Below the pieces are notes generated by a model. It saw only the letters and a list, made by a program, of their open reading frames with translations. It was not told the DNA's origin and made no database searches. Below are positions 1-9,618 of a DNA stretch of 64,000 bases, piece by piece (the first letter of the stretch is position 1; the number at the start of each line of letters is the position of its first letter). Origin of the DNA: Magnetovibrio blakemorei (GTDB lineage Bacteria; Pseudomonadota; Alphaproteobacteria; Rhodospirillales; Magnetovibrionaceae); contig NZ_MCGG01000036.1 in assembly GCF_001746755.1 (NCBI RefSeq), positions 1-64,000 of the forward strand, read 5' to 3'. A program made the translations under genes and the position numbers.

Positions 1-387
1 AACGGCTTTCTTCAATTAAAATCGGTAAAACCGGATTTGTTTTCCGAGTCCCAAAACAAGGGGAACAAGAAAAATGGTGTGCAATTGGCAGCCGCGCCAG
101 CGGCAGCGCTGGCGCTCCCCTGGTTTGCGGCAGAAATTTCAGGATGGGCAGCCGGAGCCGCCGGGCTTTTGGGCATGGCTCTCCCGCTAAAGGGCGATAC
201 GCCTCAGGATGACAACTGCGATTATCAGCTCTATAATGTCGACGTGCCGACGTGCAATGCAATCAAAGAACGAAGAGGTGAGGCGGCAGCTCAAAGGTGC
301 TTTTCTTCAGCAAATGAGCGCTACGCAGCTTGTATTGCTGGTAAACCTCGTGCTCAATGGCCGCCATTAGACACATGGAACAACTAG
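1..387 (+). CDS. C-terminal end of a putative polymorphic toxin (partial, enters from left edge)
   Basis: The frame is open from the first base, so this is the end of a longer protein; the TTG at 37 is probably not a real start. The visible part has an Ala/Gly-rich hydrophobic stretch at roughly residues 30-60, then a Cys-rich tip with the pattern CNAIKERRG, RCFSSANERYAAC and a final PPLDTWNN. A second copy of this tip lies at 1079-1264, also directly in front of a small related gene. A variable toxic tip followed at once by an overlapping small gene is the usual layout of Rhs/PAAR or contact-dependent polymorphic toxins with immunity genes. I cannot name the toxin family or its activity. The last 13 bases overlap the start of the next gene, which suggests translational coupling. 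Toxin identity is inference from context. Confidence 0.5.
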   Translation, partial: NGFLQLKSVKPDLFSESQNKGNKKNGVQLAAAPAAALALPWFAAEISGWAAGAAGLLGMALPLKGDTPQDDNCDYQLYNVDVPTCNAIKERRGEAAAQRCFSSANERYAACIAGKPRAQWPPLDTWNN

Positions 388-677
388 GAAAATCTGAGTA
401 CGCCATTAAAGCCATGGCCGTAAACGGCGATGGTGATCGCGCACCTTTTACCCTATCCATTTATGACGGGGGCAAGGAGGGGACAAACTATTATTGTTGG
501 GTGCGATGTCCTTATATCCGGGATTATGACCTGAAGATTATTAATATAGGTAAATCGGAGTCACTCAAAGATTCACTTGAATTCATAAAAAACTTTTTAA
601 AACATTCGAACACGCAACTCATAAACGAAAATGAGCAGCAAGTTGACCTTCCGCCGCTGGATACATGGAACAACTGA
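375..677 (+). CDS. Putative immunity protein, copy 1, with a recombined C-terminus
   Basis: A 100-residue protein that starts MEQLGKSEYAIKAM; the ATG lies inside the last codons of the upstream toxin tip. It is paralogous to the genes at 665 and 1252. All three share a (V/I)NG(D/E)G..(A/V)PF.LSI core, then VRC..IR..DLKI and an amphipathic segment. Its end is odd: after VDLPP the protein continues LDTWNN, the terminal motif of the toxin tips, where copy 3 instead continues YEYTVEEP. The tail therefore looks swapped in from a toxin 3' end at a short shared CTxCCxCC sequence. No known domain is claimed. A role as cytosolic immunity protein is inferred from position and duplication. Confidence 0.55.
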   Translation: MEQLGKSEYAIKAMAVNGDGDRAPFTLSIYDGGKEGTNYYCWVRCPYIRDYDLKIINIGKSESLKDSLEFIKNFLKHSNTQLINENEQQVDLPPLDTWNN

Positions 678-703
678 CCGACCCCATCTTCAAACTTGAT
701 GCC
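654..703 (+). repeat. 50-bp exact direct repeat, copy 1 (toxin stop / immunity start)
   Basis: This block is identical to 1241-1290. It covers the last toxin codons (encoding PLDTWNN and the stop) and the first 13 codons of the overlapping immunity gene (MEQLTDPIFKLDA). Exact identity points to recent duplication or gene conversion. Confidence 0.9.
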
Positions 704-978
704 ATCGTCGTAAACGGGGATGGCAAAAAGGCACCATTTTCTCTTTCCATATTTTATGGAGGGATCGAAGAAAAGGATATCTGTCACTACTGTTGGGTAA
801 GATGCTCGCACATTCGGAACCGGGACTTGAAGATTTTTGGCGTTGACGATGCCGGTGCTCTTGCGGGAGCCCTTTTATTCACCGAAACATATCTCAACAC
901 GGGGGTGAATTTCTGATCAATGAGGACGGAGAGGAAGTGTGCTTGCCGCCGTATGAATACGCTGCAGAAGAGCCGTAA
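665..978 (+). pseudogene. Putative immunity protein, copy 2, frameshifted
   Basis: The gene opens MEQLTDPIFKLDAIVVNGDG and matches copy 3 closely through a segment ending LFTETYL, but the frame stops at 916. In another frame the expected tail follows at once: LINEDGEEVCLPPYEYAAEEP, stop at 976-978. This matches copy 3 (RLVDHGGREVCLPPYEYTVEEP) and copy 1 (QLINENEQQVDLPP). The break lies close to a run of five G at 901-905 and fits a net one-base loss. The truncated 83-residue product could still be made. A sequencing error, phase variation or genuine decay would all look the same here. Confidence 0.65.
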
Positions 979-1015
979 AGGTTTTGAAACAGCGTAGCCT
1001 GTGACATACGAGTCC
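979..1015 (+). repeat. Imperfect direct repeat downstream of immunity copy 2
   Basis: These 37 bases follow the shared GAAGAGCCGTAA end of copy 2 and match 1561-1597 after copy 3 at 31 of 37 positions. The duplicated unit therefore extended past the coding region. Confidence 0.75.
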
Positions 1016-1078
1016 AGCGATCCTTTTTCTCTCTGCTTTGAGTTCACTCACCGGGATTGTCAGAGTAAACCAACTTGA

Positions 1079-1264
1079 AACGGCGAGATTTGTTTCGTAG
1101 CTTTATTGAATGAGAAATCCATTCCGTCGTGCAATGAGATTTTGAAACGCCGTGGGAAACAAGCTGGAGCGCGCTGCCGTGCAACGGCGAGTGAACGATA
1201 CTCCGCCTGCTTGGCGGGCAAGCCGCGTGATCAATGGCCACCGCTGGATACATGGAACAACTGA
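1079..1264 (+). pseudogene. Orphan toxin C-terminal tip (displaced cassette)
   Basis: An open frame follows a TGA at 1076 and ends at the TGA at 1262-1264. It encodes CFVALLNEKSIPSC, then NEILKRRGKQAG, RCRATASERYSACLAGKP and a final QWPPLDTWNN. Residue by residue it parallels the tip at 220-387 (spaced Cys, RRG, RC, SERY.AC.AGKPR, QWPPLDTWNN). There is no proper start codon or ribosome-binding site and no body of a toxin, so this is a displaced 3' fragment of a related toxin gene. Orphan tip-plus-immunity cassettes downstream of a full toxin are known in Rhs and CDI loci, where they serve as a recombination reserve. Confidence 0.7.
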
Positions 1265-1290
1265 CCGACCCCATCTTCAAACTTGATGCC
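1241..1290 (+). repeat. 50-bp exact direct repeat, copy 2
   Basis: Identical to 654-703. It spans the end of the orphan toxin tip and the start of immunity copy 3. Confidence 0.9.
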
Positions 1291-1560
1291 CTCGCCATTA
1301 ATGGCGAGGGCGAACGGGTGCCATTTTCACTTTCTATTTTTCGTGGGGGGATTGAGGAGCTCGGGCATTTTTGCTTGGTTCGCTGCCCGTACATTAGAAG
1401 CCGAGATTTGAAGATTATTGGCGGTGATCATGAAGAAGCCTTGGCAAATGCCATTTTATTCACCGAAAGCTACCTCAAAAACACTGGGACGCGGTTGGTC
1501 GATCATGGTGGCCGAGAAGTCTGCTTGCCACCGTATGAATACACCGTAGAAGAGCCGTAA
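1252..1560 (+). CDS. Putative immunity protein, copy 3 (intact)
   Basis: A 102-residue protein beginning MEQLTDPIFKLDALAINGEG. It is the only copy of the three with an unbroken native-looking end (VCLPPYEYTVEEP). Its ATG overlaps the stop of the orphan toxin tip by 13 bases, the same arrangement as copy 1. An ATG six codons upstream is in frame, but the alignment with copies 1 and 2 and the conserved overlap favour 1252. It has no signal peptide or membrane segment, so it is probably cytosolic. Function as immunity protein is inferred from genomic layout only. Confidence 0.6.
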   Translation: MEQLTDPIFKLDALAINGEGERVPFSLSIFRGGIEELGHFCLVRCPYIRSRDLKIIGGDHEEALANAILFTESYLKNTGTRLVDHGGREVCLPPYEYTVEEP

Positions 1561-1597
1561 AGGTTCTGAAACGGCATAGCCTACGACATACGTGTCC
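1561..1597 (+). repeat. Imperfect direct repeat downstream of immunity copy 3
   Basis: Matches 979-1015 at 31 of 37 positions directly after the stop codon of copy 3. It marks the right border of the duplicated unit. Confidence 0.75.
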
Positions 1598-1663
1598 TGT
1601 TTCTCCCAATTTTGAACTTGCCCATTCCCTGTTACGCGCTGCGGGAATATCCACACGATCAGC

Positions 1664-4876: not shown

Positions 4877-5848
4877 TTAGCGGCCGAGAGGTTTGCGCAC
4901 GGCGCCCTTTTTTTCGGCCAGAAGGCACAATAAATCGTGCGCAATCGTGGCGGCATTGATGGCTGTCAATTCAGATACGTCATAAGCCGGGGCAACTTCG
5001 ACCACGTCCATGCCGACCAAATTGAGCGCGCCCAAGCCCCGCACAATCTCCAACGCTTGTGCCGACGTCAGCCCGCCCGGCACGGGCGTGCCGGTGCCGG
5101 GGGCGAAGGCCGGGTCCAGGCAGTCGATGTCAAAGGTCAAATAGGCCTTGGTATCGCCCACCCGCTCTAATATTGCTTCGATTGTGGCGTCCACGCCGTT
5201 GCGGTGAACCCAAGGCGAGGTGAGAATGTCAAAGCCGTGATCTGAATCGTTGTGGGTGCGGATGCCGACCTGGATGGAGTGTTCAACCTTCAACAGGCCC
5301 TCGTTTTTGGCGCGCAGAAACATGGAGCCGTGATCAAAACGTTTGCCGTCATCTTCCCAGGTGTCGGGATGGGCATCGAAATGGACCAGCGCGATCGGAC
5401 CGTGCTTGGCGGCCACGGCGCGCAAGATGGGATAGCTGACGAAGTGATCGCCGCCAAAGCTGAGCGGTAAGACGTTGGCGTCTAAAATACGCGTGATGTG
5501 CGCTTCGATGGCATCAACAACTTGGTTTGGATACTGCGCGTCGACAAAACAATCGCCGACGTCCACCACGGCCAAATGGTCAAACGGATCAAATCCAAAC
5601 GGAAAGGCGGAAAGTTCCGCCAATTGTACGGACGCTTGGCGAATGGCGCGCGGTCCCAACCGGGCTCCGGAGCGATAGGTGGTGGCGCAGTCGTAAGGAA
5701 TGCCGCTGACCGCGACGTCGACGCCGCTCAGGTTTTCGGTGTATTTGCGGCGTAAAAAGCTCACCGCGCCGCCATAGGTCATTTCCGGCCAGCGGCCATA
5801 CAGATCGTCTTTGCGAAAGGCTTGGTCGCCGTGATTTTGGTCCGACAT
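4877..5848 (-). CDS. speB: Agmatinase (ureohydrolase)
   Basis: A 323-residue ureohydrolase that converts agmatine to putrescine and urea. The binuclear Mn site motifs are all present: GGDHFVSYP, HFDAHPDTW, and FDIDCLDPAFAPGTGTPVPG. The ATG at 5848 follows GAGGA at ten bases; the longer TTG reading at 5872 would place the ribosome-binding site inside the gene. Its neighbours (puuB upstream on the same strand, puuDA and the pot genes divergent) suggest that putrescine made here enters the glutamylation pathway. Guanidinobutyrase or a related guanidino hydrolase is possible, since family members are hard to separate by motif alone. Confidence 0.88.
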   Translation of the reverse strand: MSDQNHGDQAFRKDDLYGRWPEMTYGGAVSFLRRKYTENLSGVDVAVSGIPYDCATTYRSGARLGPRAIRQASVQLAELSAFPFGFDPFDHLAVVDVGDCFVDAQYPNQVVDAIEAHITRILDANVLPLSFGGDHFVSYPILRAVAAKHGPIALVHFDAHPDTWEDDGKRFDHGSMFLRAKNEGLLKVEHSIQVGIRTHNDSDHGFDILTSPWVHRNGVDATIEAILERVGDTKAYLTFDIDCLDPAFAPGTGTPVPGGLTSAQALEIVRGLGALNLVGMDVVEVAPAYDVSELTAINAATIAHDLLCLLAEKKGAVRKPLGR

Positions 5849-5908
5849 AATGATTTTGTCCTCAGATTGCAAACCTCAGTATACGGCAATTTGGTGGCTG
5901 ATAAAGGG

Positions 5909-7198
5909 TTACAGCAAATCCCTCAGCTTGAAATACGCCATGGCCAAAACCAGGGCCGGTTTGCGCATCAGCACCCCGCCGGGAAACGACATGTGGGGAA
6001 TGCGGGTGAAAACGTCAAACCGCTCGGCTGTGCCTTGAACGGCTTCAGCCATGAGTTTCCCCGCCAGTCCGGTAAGCAAAATCCCATGCCCGGAAAAGCC
6101 GTGGGCGAAAAAGATGTTTTTGCCCACGCGGCCAAAGTGCGGCAAACGATTGACGGTGATGGCGACGTTGCCGCCCCACGCATAATCGATGCGGGTCCCC
6201 GCCAGTTGGGGATAAACCTTGTTCATGGTGGCCCCCATGGTTTGTTTCAAATCGAACGGGACCAAGCCGGAATAGCTGACCCGTCCGCCAAACAACATGC
6301 GTTTATCGGCGGACAGTCGCCAATAGTTGAGCACGAAGTTGATGTCGACCACGCCATCGTCGTCGCGAATGAGGCTTTTGGCCAAAGCGCCGTCCAACGG
6401 TTCCGTCGCGACCATAAAGGTGCCCACGGGAATGATTTTGCGGGCAAGTTGCGGTTCCAGCTTTTCCAGGTAGGCGTTGGCGCACAAAATCACATGGGCG
6501 CACTTGACCGATCCCTGGGCGGTGGTGATGACGGGGGCGGTGGCTTCCGCTATGTGGGTGGCGGGGGTGTGTTCATAGATGACGGCTCCCGCGCGCTCCG
6601 CTGCTGCCGCCAAGCCCAATGTATAATTGAGCGGGTGCAGATGGCCGCTGCCCGGATCACTGAGCGCACCGATGTATTTGTCGCTGCCCACCCGCGCGCG
6701 GGCCTCACTCTGATCCAGCATCTTTAGGCCTGGATAAGTGCAATCGTTTTCCAGTTCATCCTTGAGCGTTTGCAATTCGTGCAGCTGGCGGGGTTTGATG
6801 GCCATCATCAAATGGCCCCATTTCAGATCGCACGAAATGGCATGGGTGGCAACTGTTTCGGCCAGCAAATTTTTGGCTTGCAGGCCCAGCTCCCAAAGTC
6901 TCTTGGCATCGTCAGGTCCCACCAGAGACGCTATTTCGCGCACCGTCTTGTTGTAACCGATGATGGCTTGTCCGCCGCTGCGCCCTGACGCGCCCCAACC
7001 GACTTGATGGCTTTCTAACACAACCACCTTGAATCCTTGTTGCGCCAAATGTAATGCTGCCATAGACCCGGTGATGCCCGCGCCGATCACGCACACGTCA
7101 CACAGGACGTCGCCTTTTAAAGGTGCGCGCTGGGGTGACGGGTTGGCGGAGGCTGCATAATACGAGTCCGCATGACGGGTGTTGTGTATCGTGCTCAT
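5909..7198 (-). CDS. puuB: Gamma-glutamylputrescine oxidase (FAD-dependent)
   Basis: A 429-residue DAO-family flavoprotein. An N-terminal Rossmann fold begins with CVIGAGITGSMAALHLA at about residues 35-52, followed by GWGASGRSGGQ, typical of the amino-acid and polyamine oxidases of this group. A C-terminal FAD-contact segment, AHGFSGHGILLTGLAG, follows. PuuB oxidises gamma-glutamylputrescine to the aldehyde with release of ammonia and H2O2. The gene is divergent from puuD-puuA and shares a 303-base control region with it. A perfect 14-base dyad lies only ten bases before the start codon, where a repressor would block expression. Confidence 0.87.
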   Translation of the reverse strand: MSTIHNTRHADSYYAASANPSPQRAPLKGDVLCDVCVIGAGITGSMAALHLAQQGFKVVVLESHQVGWGASGRSGGQAIIGYNKTVREIASLVGPDDAKRLWELGLQAKNLLAETVATHAISCDLKWGHLMMAIKPRQLHELQTLKDELENDCTYPGLKMLDQSEARARVGSDKYIGALSDPGSGHLHPLNYTLGLAAAAERAGAVIYEHTPATHIAEATAPVITTAQGSVKCAHVILCANAYLEKLEPQLARKIIPVGTFMVATEPLDGALAKSLIRDDDGVVDINFVLNYWRLSADKRMLFGGRVSYSGLVPFDLKQTMGATMNKVYPQLAGTRIDYAWGGNVAITVNRLPHFGRVGKNIFFAHGFSGHGILLTGLAGKLMAEAVQGTAERFDVFTRIPHMSFPGGVLMRKPALVLAMAYFKLRDLL

Positions 7199-7207
7199 GG
7201 GCTCACT

Positions 7208-7221
7208 CTAAAACGTTTTAG
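7208..7221. promoter_or_regulatory. Perfect palindromic operator candidate near puuB
   Basis: CTAAAACGTTTTAG is a perfect 14-base palindrome with a central CG, the form favoured by LacI/GalR-family repressors. It ends ten bases upstream of the puuB start codon. No regulator gene lies nearby, so the cognate factor is unknown. Confidence 0.55.
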
Positions 7222-7452
7222 GGCAAAAGGGGTGCGTCGATGGCCTTGTTGGGGTTTTGTGTGCGACGGATATTGTCCATTATATTTTAATGGCGTGAAT
7301 AGGGAAAGGTCTGTGGCGTTATTTCAGATTTTGCCTGCTAGCAGGGCATAATCAATTGCAACAGCGGGTAATTTACAATGCCAGGCGTAATTTATAAAGG
7401 TTCTATTCGTGCCTTGTTGGTCGTTTGTGGGCATGGTAGTGTTGCATATATC

Positions 7453-7460
7453 AAACGTTT
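7453..7460. promoter_or_regulatory. Second AAACGTTT element, near puuD
   Basis: The core AAACGTTT (within TCAAACGTTTTGC) repeats the centre of the palindrome at 7208-7221. It lies about 42 bases before the puuD start, where a repressor would overlap the promoter. The outer bases are not symmetric, so it is a weaker match. Confidence 0.4.
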
Positions 7461-7501
7461 TGCCGTTATGGCTTTGTTTTCATTGAGGTGAAAAGACAAT
7501 C

Positions 7502-8263
7502 ATGCGCTCCGTGCCCATTGTTGCAGTTTCTTCGTGCATTAAAGATGTCGACGGCTATGCGAACTATGCGGTCGGCATAAAGTATGTCAACGCGTTGGCA
7601 GAAGCCGCAGGCGTGACGCCCATTATTTTACCTTCGCTCGGTTCCTCCACCCATGCCGAAGACGTTTTGAAGGTGTGTGACGGTCTCTATCTGACCGGCA
7701 GCGTTTCCAACGTTGAACCCCATCATTTTGGCGGTGAGCCCAGCGAAGCCGGGACCTTGCACGATCCCCAGCGCGACGCCACGATTATACCGTTGATCCG
7801 TCAGGCGGTCCAAGAGGGTGTGCCGGTGTTTGCCATTTGCCGGGGATTTCAAGAAATGAACGTCGCCTTTGGCGGCACCTTGCATCAAAAAGTCCATGTC
7901 GTAGCAGGCAAGATCGACCACCGCGAAGACCGCACGCAGACCCCCGACGTCTATTTTGGGCCCGCCCATGAGGTTGAGTTGGTTGAAGGCGGCCTGTTGC
8001 ACGGTATCGCCGGGGCATCGCGCGTGAGCGTCAATTCACTGCATGGCCAAGGCGTGGCGCAACTGGCACCGGGCCTTGACGTTGAGGCCACAGCGCCGGA
8101 TGGTCTGATCGAAGCGTTTTGCGTCAAAGGGGCCAAGGCGTTTGCCCTGGGCGTGCAGTGGCATCCCGAATGGAAAGTCATGGAAAACGCATTTGCACGT
8201 GCATTGTTTGAGCGTTTCGGCGAAGCTTGCCGGGGGCGCGCTGAGAAAAGAAATGAGCGATGA
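7502..8263 (+). CDS. puuD: Gamma-glutamyl-GABA hydrolase (class I glutamine amidotransferase fold)
   Basis: A 253-residue PuuD-type peptidase C26. The nucleophile Cys113 sits in FAICRGFQEMN, and the catalytic His and Glu in VQWHPEW near residue 220. PuuD releases GABA from gamma-glutamyl-GABA, the last glutamylated step of putrescine breakdown. The start is preceded by TGAGGTG. Its stop overlaps the puuA start in an ATGA, so the two are translationally coupled and form the head of a long operon that continues through the transport genes. Confidence 0.9.
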   Translation: MRSVPIVAVSSCIKDVDGYANYAVGIKYVNALAEAAGVTPIILPSLGSSTHAEDVLKVCDGLYLTGSVSNVEPHHFGGEPSEAGTLHDPQRDATIIPLIRQAVQEGVPVFAICRGFQEMNVAFGGTLHQKVHVVAGKIDHREDRTQTPDVYFGPAHEVELVEGGLLHGIAGASRVSVNSLHGQGVAQLAPGLDVEATAPDGLIEAFCVKGAKAFALGVQWHPEWKVMENAFARALFERFGEACRGRAEKRNER

Positions 8264-9618
8264 CACATTCAGATAAAATTATCGATATCGATGCCTGGTG
8301 CATTGAGCACCGGATCACCGAAGTTGAATGCCTGATCCCCGATATTTCGGGCATTCCGCGCGGGAAAATCTTGCCGTCTGAAAAATTTCTCAAGGGCATT
8401 CAGACCGATACCCATCGTATGCCGGAAAGCATGTTCACCCAGACCGTTACGGGCGACTTTCCCGAAACCTTCGATTTGGTGTCGGTGGTCGATAAAGATG
8501 TGGTGATGCGCCCCGACCCCAGCACCATACGCCCGGTGCCTTGGTATACGGAACCGACCGCGCAGGTGATCTGCGATTGCGTCTACACCGATGGCACGCC
8601 TGTGGACATTTCATCGCGCCAAGTGCTGCGCGAGGTGCTGGCCCTTTACGAAGACAAAGGCTGGAAGCCAGTGATCGCGCCCGAGGTCGAGATGTATCTG
8701 GTGAAGAAAAACATCGATCCCGATTATCCGTTGGAACCGCCCATTGGTCGGTCCGGCCGTCCGGAAACGGGCCGTCAAGCTTTCGGCATCGATGCCGCCA
8801 ACGAATTTGATGAAGTCTTTGAAGACGTCTACGATTATTGCGAGGCCGAACGCATCGACATCGATACCCTCAATCACGAAGGCGGTGCCGCGCAGATGGA
8901 GGTGAATTTCCTCCACGGCGACTCCCTCGATTTGGCCGATCAGGTCTTTTTGTTCAAGCGCACTTTGCGTCAAACCGCCATAAATCACGGCGTTTACGCC
9001 ACCTTTATGGCCAAACCCATGCAAAGAGAAGCGGGCAGCGCCTTGCATATTCACCAAAGTCTTTACGACCTGGAGACAGGTAAAAACGTATTCAGCGATG
9101 ACGGGGACGGCGATACGCCCTTGTTTATGTCATGTGTGGCCGGCATGCAAACCTACGCCCCTGTGATGATGCCCTTGTTTGCGCCGAACGTGAATTCTTA
9201 CCGCCGTTTTGCCTATGAAGAGGCCCCCATCAACACCCATTGGGGGCTGGACAACCGCAGTTGTGGATTGCGCATTCCGCGTTCCGACCCGGCGTCTCGG
9301 CGGGTCGAAAATCGGCTGCCGGGTGCGGACGTTAATCCTTATCTGGCGATTGCGGCGACCCTGGCGTGTGGCTATTTGGGCATGATCGAAAACTTGACGC
9401 CGACGGCACCGGAACTCGGCAACGCCTATATTCTTCCCAAAAACCTGCCGACGCATTTGTCCGACGCCTTGAAGCGCTTTGAACAGAACGCGTCGGTGCG
9501 CAAGATCCTGGGCGATCGGTTCGTCGATTTGTTCTGCATCGTTAAGCGGGAAGAATTGGTGACTTATGATCAAGTGATCAGTTCGTGGGAACGCGAACAT
9601 CTGTTGTTGAACGTTTGA
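8260..9618 (+). CDS. puuA: Gamma-glutamylputrescine synthetase
   Basis: A 452-residue glutamine-synthetase-fold enzyme. An N-terminal beta-grasp region precedes the catalytic domain, with EGGAAQMEVNF, GSALHIHQSLYD and NRSCGLRIPRSDPASRRVENR as the expected metal, ATP and glutamate sites. The family joins glutamate to putrescine at the expense of ATP, starting the Puu pathway. It overlaps puuD by four bases and is followed 35 bases later by the aminotransferase. A second relative lies at 15249 at the end of the cluster, so substrate specificity may be divided between the two. Confidence 0.88.
   Translation: MTHSDKIIDIDAWCIEHRITEVECLIPDISGIPRGKILPSEKFLKGIQTDTHRMPESMFTQTVTGDFPETFDLVSVVDKDVVMRPDPSTIRPVPWYTEPTAQVICDCVYTDGTPVDISSRQVLREVLALYEDKGWKPVIAPEVEMYLVKKNIDPDYPLEPPIGRSGRPETGRQAFGIDAANEFDEVFEDVYDYCEAERIDIDTLNHEGGAAQMEVNFLHGDSLDLADQVFLFKRTLRQTAINHGVYATFMAKPMQREAGSALHIHQSLYDLETGKNVFSDDGDGDTPLFMSCVAGMQTYAPVMMPLFAPNVNSYRRFAYEEAPINTHWGLDNRSCGLRIPRSDPASRRVENRLPGADVNPYLAIAATLACGYLGMIENLTPTAPELGNAYILPKNLPTHLSDALKRFEQNASVRKILGDRFVDLFCIVKREELVTYDQVISSWEREHLLLNV

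What the first reader, a model, noticed from the sequence alone, without database searches (positions are those of the whole stretch)
1..1600. Shuffled toxin-tail/immunity cassette array at the left edge
A toxin-like C-terminal tip (ending PPLDTWNN) enters from the left and is followed by three paralogous small genes, a second orphan copy of the same tip, and shared repeats: 50 bases identical at 654-703 and 1241-1290, and 31/37 matches at 979-1015 versus 1561-1597. In both tip copies, and again where only the last tip codons remain fused to immunity copy 1, the tip stop and immunity start overlap by the same 13 bases. This is the layout of polymorphic toxin loci with displaced tips. The family of tip and immunity protein is not one I can name, which makes it the best candidate for something undescribed.
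Basis: partly seen in the sequence, partly recalled or inferred. Interest (0 to 1): 0.72.

Follow-up and report, generated by a model that had tools for sequence, protein, structure and literature searches.

The report
Shuffled toxin-tip and immunity gene array
The left end of this window holds the tail of a bacterial weapon protein followed by three copies of its likely antidote gene and a stray second tail, built from a small four-cysteine toxin tip that no protein-family database consulted here lists and that turns up on several quite different carrier proteins in other bacteria.

Summary
The array is the 3' end of an effector gene (tip, 1-387) whose 5' part lies off the contig, then immunity copy 1 (375-677), copy 2 (665-916, frameshifted, homology to ~978), an orphan tip (1088-1264) and copy 3 (1252-1560). 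Comparative searches support the polymorphic-toxin reading. The tip, C-x(10-11)-C-x14-C-x10-C then PPLDTWNN, has no match in Pfam, NCBIfam, PHROGs, PADLOC or PDB sequences. It sits at the C-terminus of RHS proteins, peptidoglycan-binding-domain proteins and a phage-type prohead protease, and 15 of 16 loci carry a small gene just downstream. In ten that gene is DUF6968-like, in five a second, unrelated-looking immunity type. The same 13-base stop/start overlap recurs in six other loci. AlphaFold predicts the tip as a helical hairpin and the antidote as a five-stranded alpha/beta protein without a significant PDB match. The genome lacks T6SS VipB, so the export route is open. In relatives the peptidoglycan-binding carrier is multi-copy, fused to many C-termini and sometimes prophage-linked. 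Toxicity and neutralisation are inferred. I call it a new variant of a known kind: an undescribed toxin-immunity family with displaced cassettes.

The parts
1..387 (+). 3' end of an effector gene; 5' part lies off the contig. Hydrophobic segment about 82-186; four-cysteine tip core 217-384; stop TAG 385-387
   Evidence: open frame from base 1; aligns with the C-terminal half of the complete 200-aa carrier protein L019; tip alignment A3
375..677 (+). immunity copy 1 (100 aa); its last 8 codons (PPLDTWNN) are those of the tip
   Evidence: 43% identical to copy 3
665..978 (+). immunity copy 2, frameshifted: frame 665-916, homology continues in another frame at 895-978
   Evidence: 68% identical to copy 3 before the shift, dN/dS 0.20
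1088..1264 (+). orphan second tip copy, no carrier and no usable start, first of four cysteines lost
   Evidence: 60% identical to the first tip
1252..1560 (+). immunity copy 3 (102 aa), intact; predicted strands plus one helix, pLDDT 86.6
654..703 (+). repeat copy A (end of tip plus start of immunity), identical to 1241-1290
1241..1290 (+). repeat copy B of the same 50 bases
934..1015 (+). immunity 3' end plus 37 nt flank, duplicated at 1516-1597 (87%)
1516..1597 (+). second copy of the immunity 3' end and flank

Best explanation
This is the tail of a polymorphic effector gene followed by an array of displaced toxin-tip/immunity cassettes. The effector most likely has a peptidoglycan-binding N-terminal domain, a hydrophobic linker and a roughly 55-60 residue C-terminal tip, a four-cysteine helical hairpin that is the toxic part. 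The gene directly downstream, a small DUF6968-like protein without an obvious signal peptide, most likely binds and neutralises the tip inside the producer. Its start codon lies inside the last tip codons, so it is probably translated by coupling to the tip. Successive replacement or duplication of tip-immunity units left older immunity copies and one headless tip behind; because the immunity start and its ribosome-binding context lie within the last tip codons, these short tip remnants are kept with each copy. One junction (copy 1 to copy 2) probably arose by recombination at the shared LPP codons of tip end and immunity end. Shown here: the anatomy, the homology, the recurrent tip-immunity linkage on unrelated carriers, and the conserved overlap. 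Inferred: toxicity, neutralisation, coupling, and the identity of the window's carrier. Not known: the molecular target of the tip and the export route.
For: Tip found on at least three unrelated carrier types: RHS (L024, L026, L027), PG-binding-domain proteins (L019-L023, L015, with PGB-like folds in PDB) and a Peptidase_S78 prohead protease (L084). In 15 of 16 tip loci (my count over) a small gene follows: ten DUF6968-like, five of a second type (A7). DUF6968 is the only or best Pfam hit in five homologues and is unambiguous in L028/L084 (E=2e-28). The 13-base overlap recurs in L019-L023 and L007. L026/L089 shows a downstream orphan RHS core with another tip. Immunity copies 2 and 3 differ with dN/dS 0.20, so they evolved under protein-level constraint. 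PG carriers occur in 35 of 60 relatives, up to 10 per genome, fused to M23, SLT, Phage_Mu_F and unknown C-termini. The array is absent at the syntenic DUF2249-NnrS-hemerythrin locus of congener G002, and no immunity homologue was found in five same-genus genomes.
Against: The window's own carrier is off the contig. No experiment shows toxicity. The tip is very short, with no recognised catalytic motif or domain. In G474 the tip is intact but the downstream immunity frame looks broken. True DUF6968 genes in G297 and G138 have no tip just upstream in the DNA read (L082, L083). The genome lacks T6SS VipB, and the complete PG carriers show no obvious signal peptide by eye, so how the protein leaves the cell is unexplained.
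Confidence: 0.78

Rival explanations
1. The four-cysteine tip is not the toxin but a conserved C-terminal sorting, stabilising or immunity-docking tag; the toxic part is the hydrophobic or Gly-zipper segment before it (a pore former) or another domain.
For: Several carriers have a strongly hydrophobic or Gly-zipper segment before the tip (L024 Gly-zipper_Omp E=7e-5; window 82-186). The tip is more conserved than I would expect of a toxin tip and pairs with two different immunity types.
Against: L022 and L023 have only a PG-binding domain and the tip, with no hydrophobic segment, yet keep the immunity gene. The same partner type is kept across different carriers.
Confidence: 0.25
2. The pair works inside the cell like a toxin-antitoxin module (as proposed for Salmonella RHS elements, PMC7043789) rather than between cells.
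For: No T6SS VipB in this genome; orphan cassettes; antidote without an obvious signal peptide; translational overlap.
Against: Linkage to RHS and PG-binding carriers and to a prohead protease points to an exported or particle-borne protein; the headless tip has no usable start.
Confidence: 0.12
3. The window array is a decaying remnant: a broken effector end and pseudogenised copies with no present function.
For: Copy 2 frameshifted, second tip headless and short of one cysteine; contig edge.
Against: Copies 1 and 3 are intact, the first tip keeps all four cysteines, and the copy 2/3 comparison shows constraint (dN/dS 0.20).
Confidence: 0.15

Closest known systems
Polymorphic toxin systems, RHS/CDI type (Zhang et al. 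2012, PMC3482391; PMC3150448)
   Same: Variable C-terminal tip on conserved carriers, cognate immunity gene directly downstream, orphan tip and immunity cassettes
   Different: This tip family has no Pfam or NCBIfam model; carriers include a small PG-binding-domain protein; no T6SS VipB in this genome
[quoted passage not shown] 2017, PMC5361080)
   Same: Successive effector replacement leaves older immunity genes in tandem behind the current pair
   Different: Here copies are paralogues of one family, each keeping the last tip codons that contain its start codon; no T6SS VipB
Pfam PF22302 DUF6968
   Same: DUF6968 is the best or only Pfam hit in five homologues of the small protein, and the partner in L084 is a true member
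   Different: Window copies give no hit and most relatives score below the gathering threshold; no function was found in the paper search
MuF phage-capsid-like toxin carriers (Zhang et al. 2012, PMC3482391)
   Same: Toxins carried on phage head proteins; some PG carriers in relatives contain Phage_Mu_F
   Different: In L084 the carrier is a Peptidase_S78 prohead protease, not MuF

Membership tests
Polymorphic toxin system | same C-terminal tip on several unrelated carriers | tested here: met
   RHS, PG-binding, prohead protease and unassigned carriers
Polymorphic toxin system | cognate immunity gene immediately downstream | tested here: met
   15 of 16 tip loci; 13-nt overlap in the window and six other loci
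Polymorphic toxin system | orphan or displaced tip and immunity cassettes | tested here: met
   window 375-1560; L026/L089 downstream RHS core with a different tip
Polymorphic toxin system | N-terminal trafficking domain and export system for the window's protein | tested here: inconclusive
   5' part off contig; relatives have a PG-binding domain; route unknown
Polymorphic toxin system | tip is toxic and is neutralised by the partner | not testable with these tools
   needs expression experiments
T6SS effector | T6SS sheath gene (VipB, PF05943) in the genome | tested here: not met
   absent in G000 (99.99% complete), G027, G199, G297; present in G474 and in RHS-tip genomes G583, G708
DUF6968 (PF22302) | score above gathering threshold, window copies | tested here: not met
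   no hit for window copies; relatives E=1e-4 to 0.06, below cut-off
DUF6968 (PF22302) | score above gathering threshold, L028/L084 partner | tested here: met
   98.5 bits versus cut-off 27
Toxin families modelled in Pfam/NCBIfam (Tox-/Ntox- type) | profile match of the tip | tested here: not met
   no toxin match; no PHROGs match for the window tip; no PDB sequence match
RHS protein | RHS repeats in the window's own carrier | not testable with these tools
   carrier lies off the contig; nearest relative (L019) is a PG-binding protein

The most novel reading that the evidence does not exclude
A roughly 55-60 residue disulfide-braced helical hairpin is a self-sufficient toxin, one of the smallest polymorphic warheads, mounted on RHS, peptidoglycan-binding and phage-head-protease carriers; in this family it leaves the cell without a T6SS, possibly by prophage- or gene-transfer-agent-like particles or lysis, and DUF6968 proteins are its antidotes.
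Probability: 0.25. Interest if true: 0.7.

Novelty: new variant of a known kind. Interest (0 to 1): 0.5.

Why it matters
It suggests a function (immunity) for at least part of an uncharacterised Pfam family (DUF6968), adds a tip family absent from the toxin catalogues searched, and points to a widespread multi-copy peptidoglycan-binding carrier in these alphaproteobacteria that may be an unrecognised delivery chassis outside T6SS. The overlapping start codon gives a simple testable reason why displaced immunity copies keep a stump of the toxin.

Tried and rejected
Extending leftwards: impossible, the contig starts at window base 1. Plasmid and phage collections: plasmids gave no match for the immunity protein, the carrier or the tip, and phages none for the carrier. 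The single-sequence genome-contig scan with the immunity protein failed; the scan with the tip/carrier alignment worked. T6SS delivery rejected for this genome. Foldseek with the immunity model: no significant PDB or BFVD match; the top PDB hit is a chain of an entry on an RHS toxin with its immunity protein (9gco, E=0.22, TM 0.35), a lead only. Immunity profile against PDB sequences gave chance antibody hits. G430/L029 (E=3e-4) does not show the tip pattern and was discarded. PADLOC hits of the neighbouring ATPase are generic AAA matches. Canonical DUF6968 in G297 and G138 is not next to a tip, so 'all DUF6968 are antidotes' is not claimed.

Full report
What is there. The window begins at base 1 of contig C36 of a 99.99% complete genome. 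An open frame enters from the left and ends at 387 with ...PPLDTWNN. Immunity-like frames follow at 375-677, 665-916 (homology continuing in another frame at 895-978) and 1252-1560, with a headless second tip at 1088-1264. Copy 1 ends with the last tip codons, so copy 2 starts inside copy 1 just as copy 3 starts inside the second tip. The immunity proteins end in an LPP motif of their own (for example REVCLPPYEY) and the tip ends in PPLDTWNN, so the copy 1/copy 2 junction is readily explained by recombination at these similar codons (inference). Copies 2 and 3 differ with dN/dS 0.20.

Relatives. A search of 100 related genomes found the small protein in only two others. One (G015:C97, the contig titled Thalassospiraceae bacterium) has the complete two-gene unit: a 200-aa protein with a peptidoglycan-binding-like N-terminal domain, a hydrophobic linker and the tip, followed with the same 13-base overlap by the small gene. 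The other (G027) keeps only the last tip codons in front of the small gene. Profile searches added PG-binding carriers L015 and L020-L023; RHS carriers L024, L026, L027 and an RHS remnant on a viral contig, L025; unassigned carriers L016-L018; and a prohead-protease carrier, L028/L084. L027 has RHS repeats (E=7e-27). L026/L089 is followed by an orphan RHS core with a different tip and its own small gene, the standard displaced-cassette layout.

The tip. Twelve tips align with strict spacing C-x(10-11)-C-x14-C-x10-C (the orphan window copy has only the last three cysteines) and invariant RG, A and R positions. AlphaFold on nine sequences predicts two helices (141-164 and 166-184 in L019) with block pLDDT 81-95 in most of this stretch. 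Cysteines 11-12 residues apart on each helix lie on one face, which fits two inter-helix disulfides, reminiscent of twin-Cx9C (CHCH) hairpins; this is a resemblance from my own knowledge, not homology. The TWNN ending is also kept in L025 and L026, where the start codon of the next gene is not inside it, so it is not merely a by-product of the overlap. L022 and L023 have no hydrophobic segment, so the roughly 55-60 residue tip is the minimal unit that travels with the immunity gene. No Pfam, NCBIfam, PADLOC or PDB-sequence match was found for the tip, and no PHROGs match for the window tip; the string PPLDTWNN and the name DUF6968 occur in no paper of the library.

The immunity protein. DUF6968 (PF22302) is the only or best Pfam hit, below threshold, in five homologues (E 1e-4 to 0.06), and the partner in L028/L084 is a clear member (E=2e-28). 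AlphaFold gives five strands and one helix (pLDDT 86.6) with no significant structural match; the top PDB hit, at E=0.22, happens to be from an RHS toxin-immunity entry. A second small-protein type (A7) follows the tip in L017, L018 and L025-L027. Over 16 tip loci, 15 have one of the two types downstream; in G474 the immunity frame looks broken.

Carrier and export. The PG-binding N-domain is a multi-copy carrier in the order: 35 of 60 genomes, up to 10 copies each, fused to M23 peptidase, SLT, Phage_Mu_F and many unknown C-termini. Some copies lie beside phage terminase or portal-like genes (L064, L066, by eye). The window genome and three other well-completed tip genomes lack T6SS VipB, while G474 and the two RHS-tip genomes tested have it. 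Zhang et al. 2012 already note PGB1 domains as likely adhesion modules and MuF as a phage-like carrier (PMC3482391). In congener G002 the syntenic DUF2249-NnrS-hemerythrin cluster has no such array.

Mechanism. Most likely the tip is the toxic end of an exported or released wall-binding effector, and the small protein neutralises it in producers; translation of the antidote is coupled to the tip by the overlap. Arrays arise by displacement as described for V. cholerae immunity arrays (PMC5361080), and the overlap explains why tip stumps persist. Homology, linkage and overlap are shown. Toxicity, binding, coupling and export are inferred, and the molecular target is unknown.

Verdict. Observation confirmed and interpretation supported. 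It is an undescribed toxin-immunity family within a known kind of system, with an unusual small tip and carrier.

Noticed in passing
L084 (G646:C58:40000-53066), 5700-8908, minus strand: A Peptidase_S78 prohead protease between portal and major capsid genes carries a divergent four-cysteine tip at its C-terminus, followed by a true DUF6968 gene: a toxin-immunity pair riding on a prophage or gene-transfer-agent-like head cluster.
   Followed up: partly
L012 7762-8721, L020 5115-5876, L021 4934-5803, L085 6884-7645: An AAA_21/AAA_15-type ATPase gene lies directly downstream of the immunity gene in four of 16 tip loci; a Walker-motif search found none of this type in the loci fetched around other PG-binding carriers. 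Possible third gene of the module.
   Followed up: partly
L030-L079, for example L041, L040, L032, L033, L051: The PG-binding N-domain is a multi-copy carrier in relatives, fused to M23 peptidase, SLT, Phage_Mu_F and many unknown tails; it looks like a general effector or lysin chassis.
   Followed up: partly
G000 contigs C50 (5-235), C48 (55306-56203), C54 (45569-45709): Other PG-binding carriers of the window's own genome; those on C50 and C48 run into contig ends.
   Followed up: no
L017, L018, L025, L026, L027: A second small-protein family (about 70-80 aa..GE(N/S/K).. motif) follows the same tip instead of the DUF6968-like protein.
   Followed up: partly
L087 (G474:C1:835000-850000) about 7505-7600: Tip intact, but the downstream immunity reading frame appears broken.
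   Followed up: no
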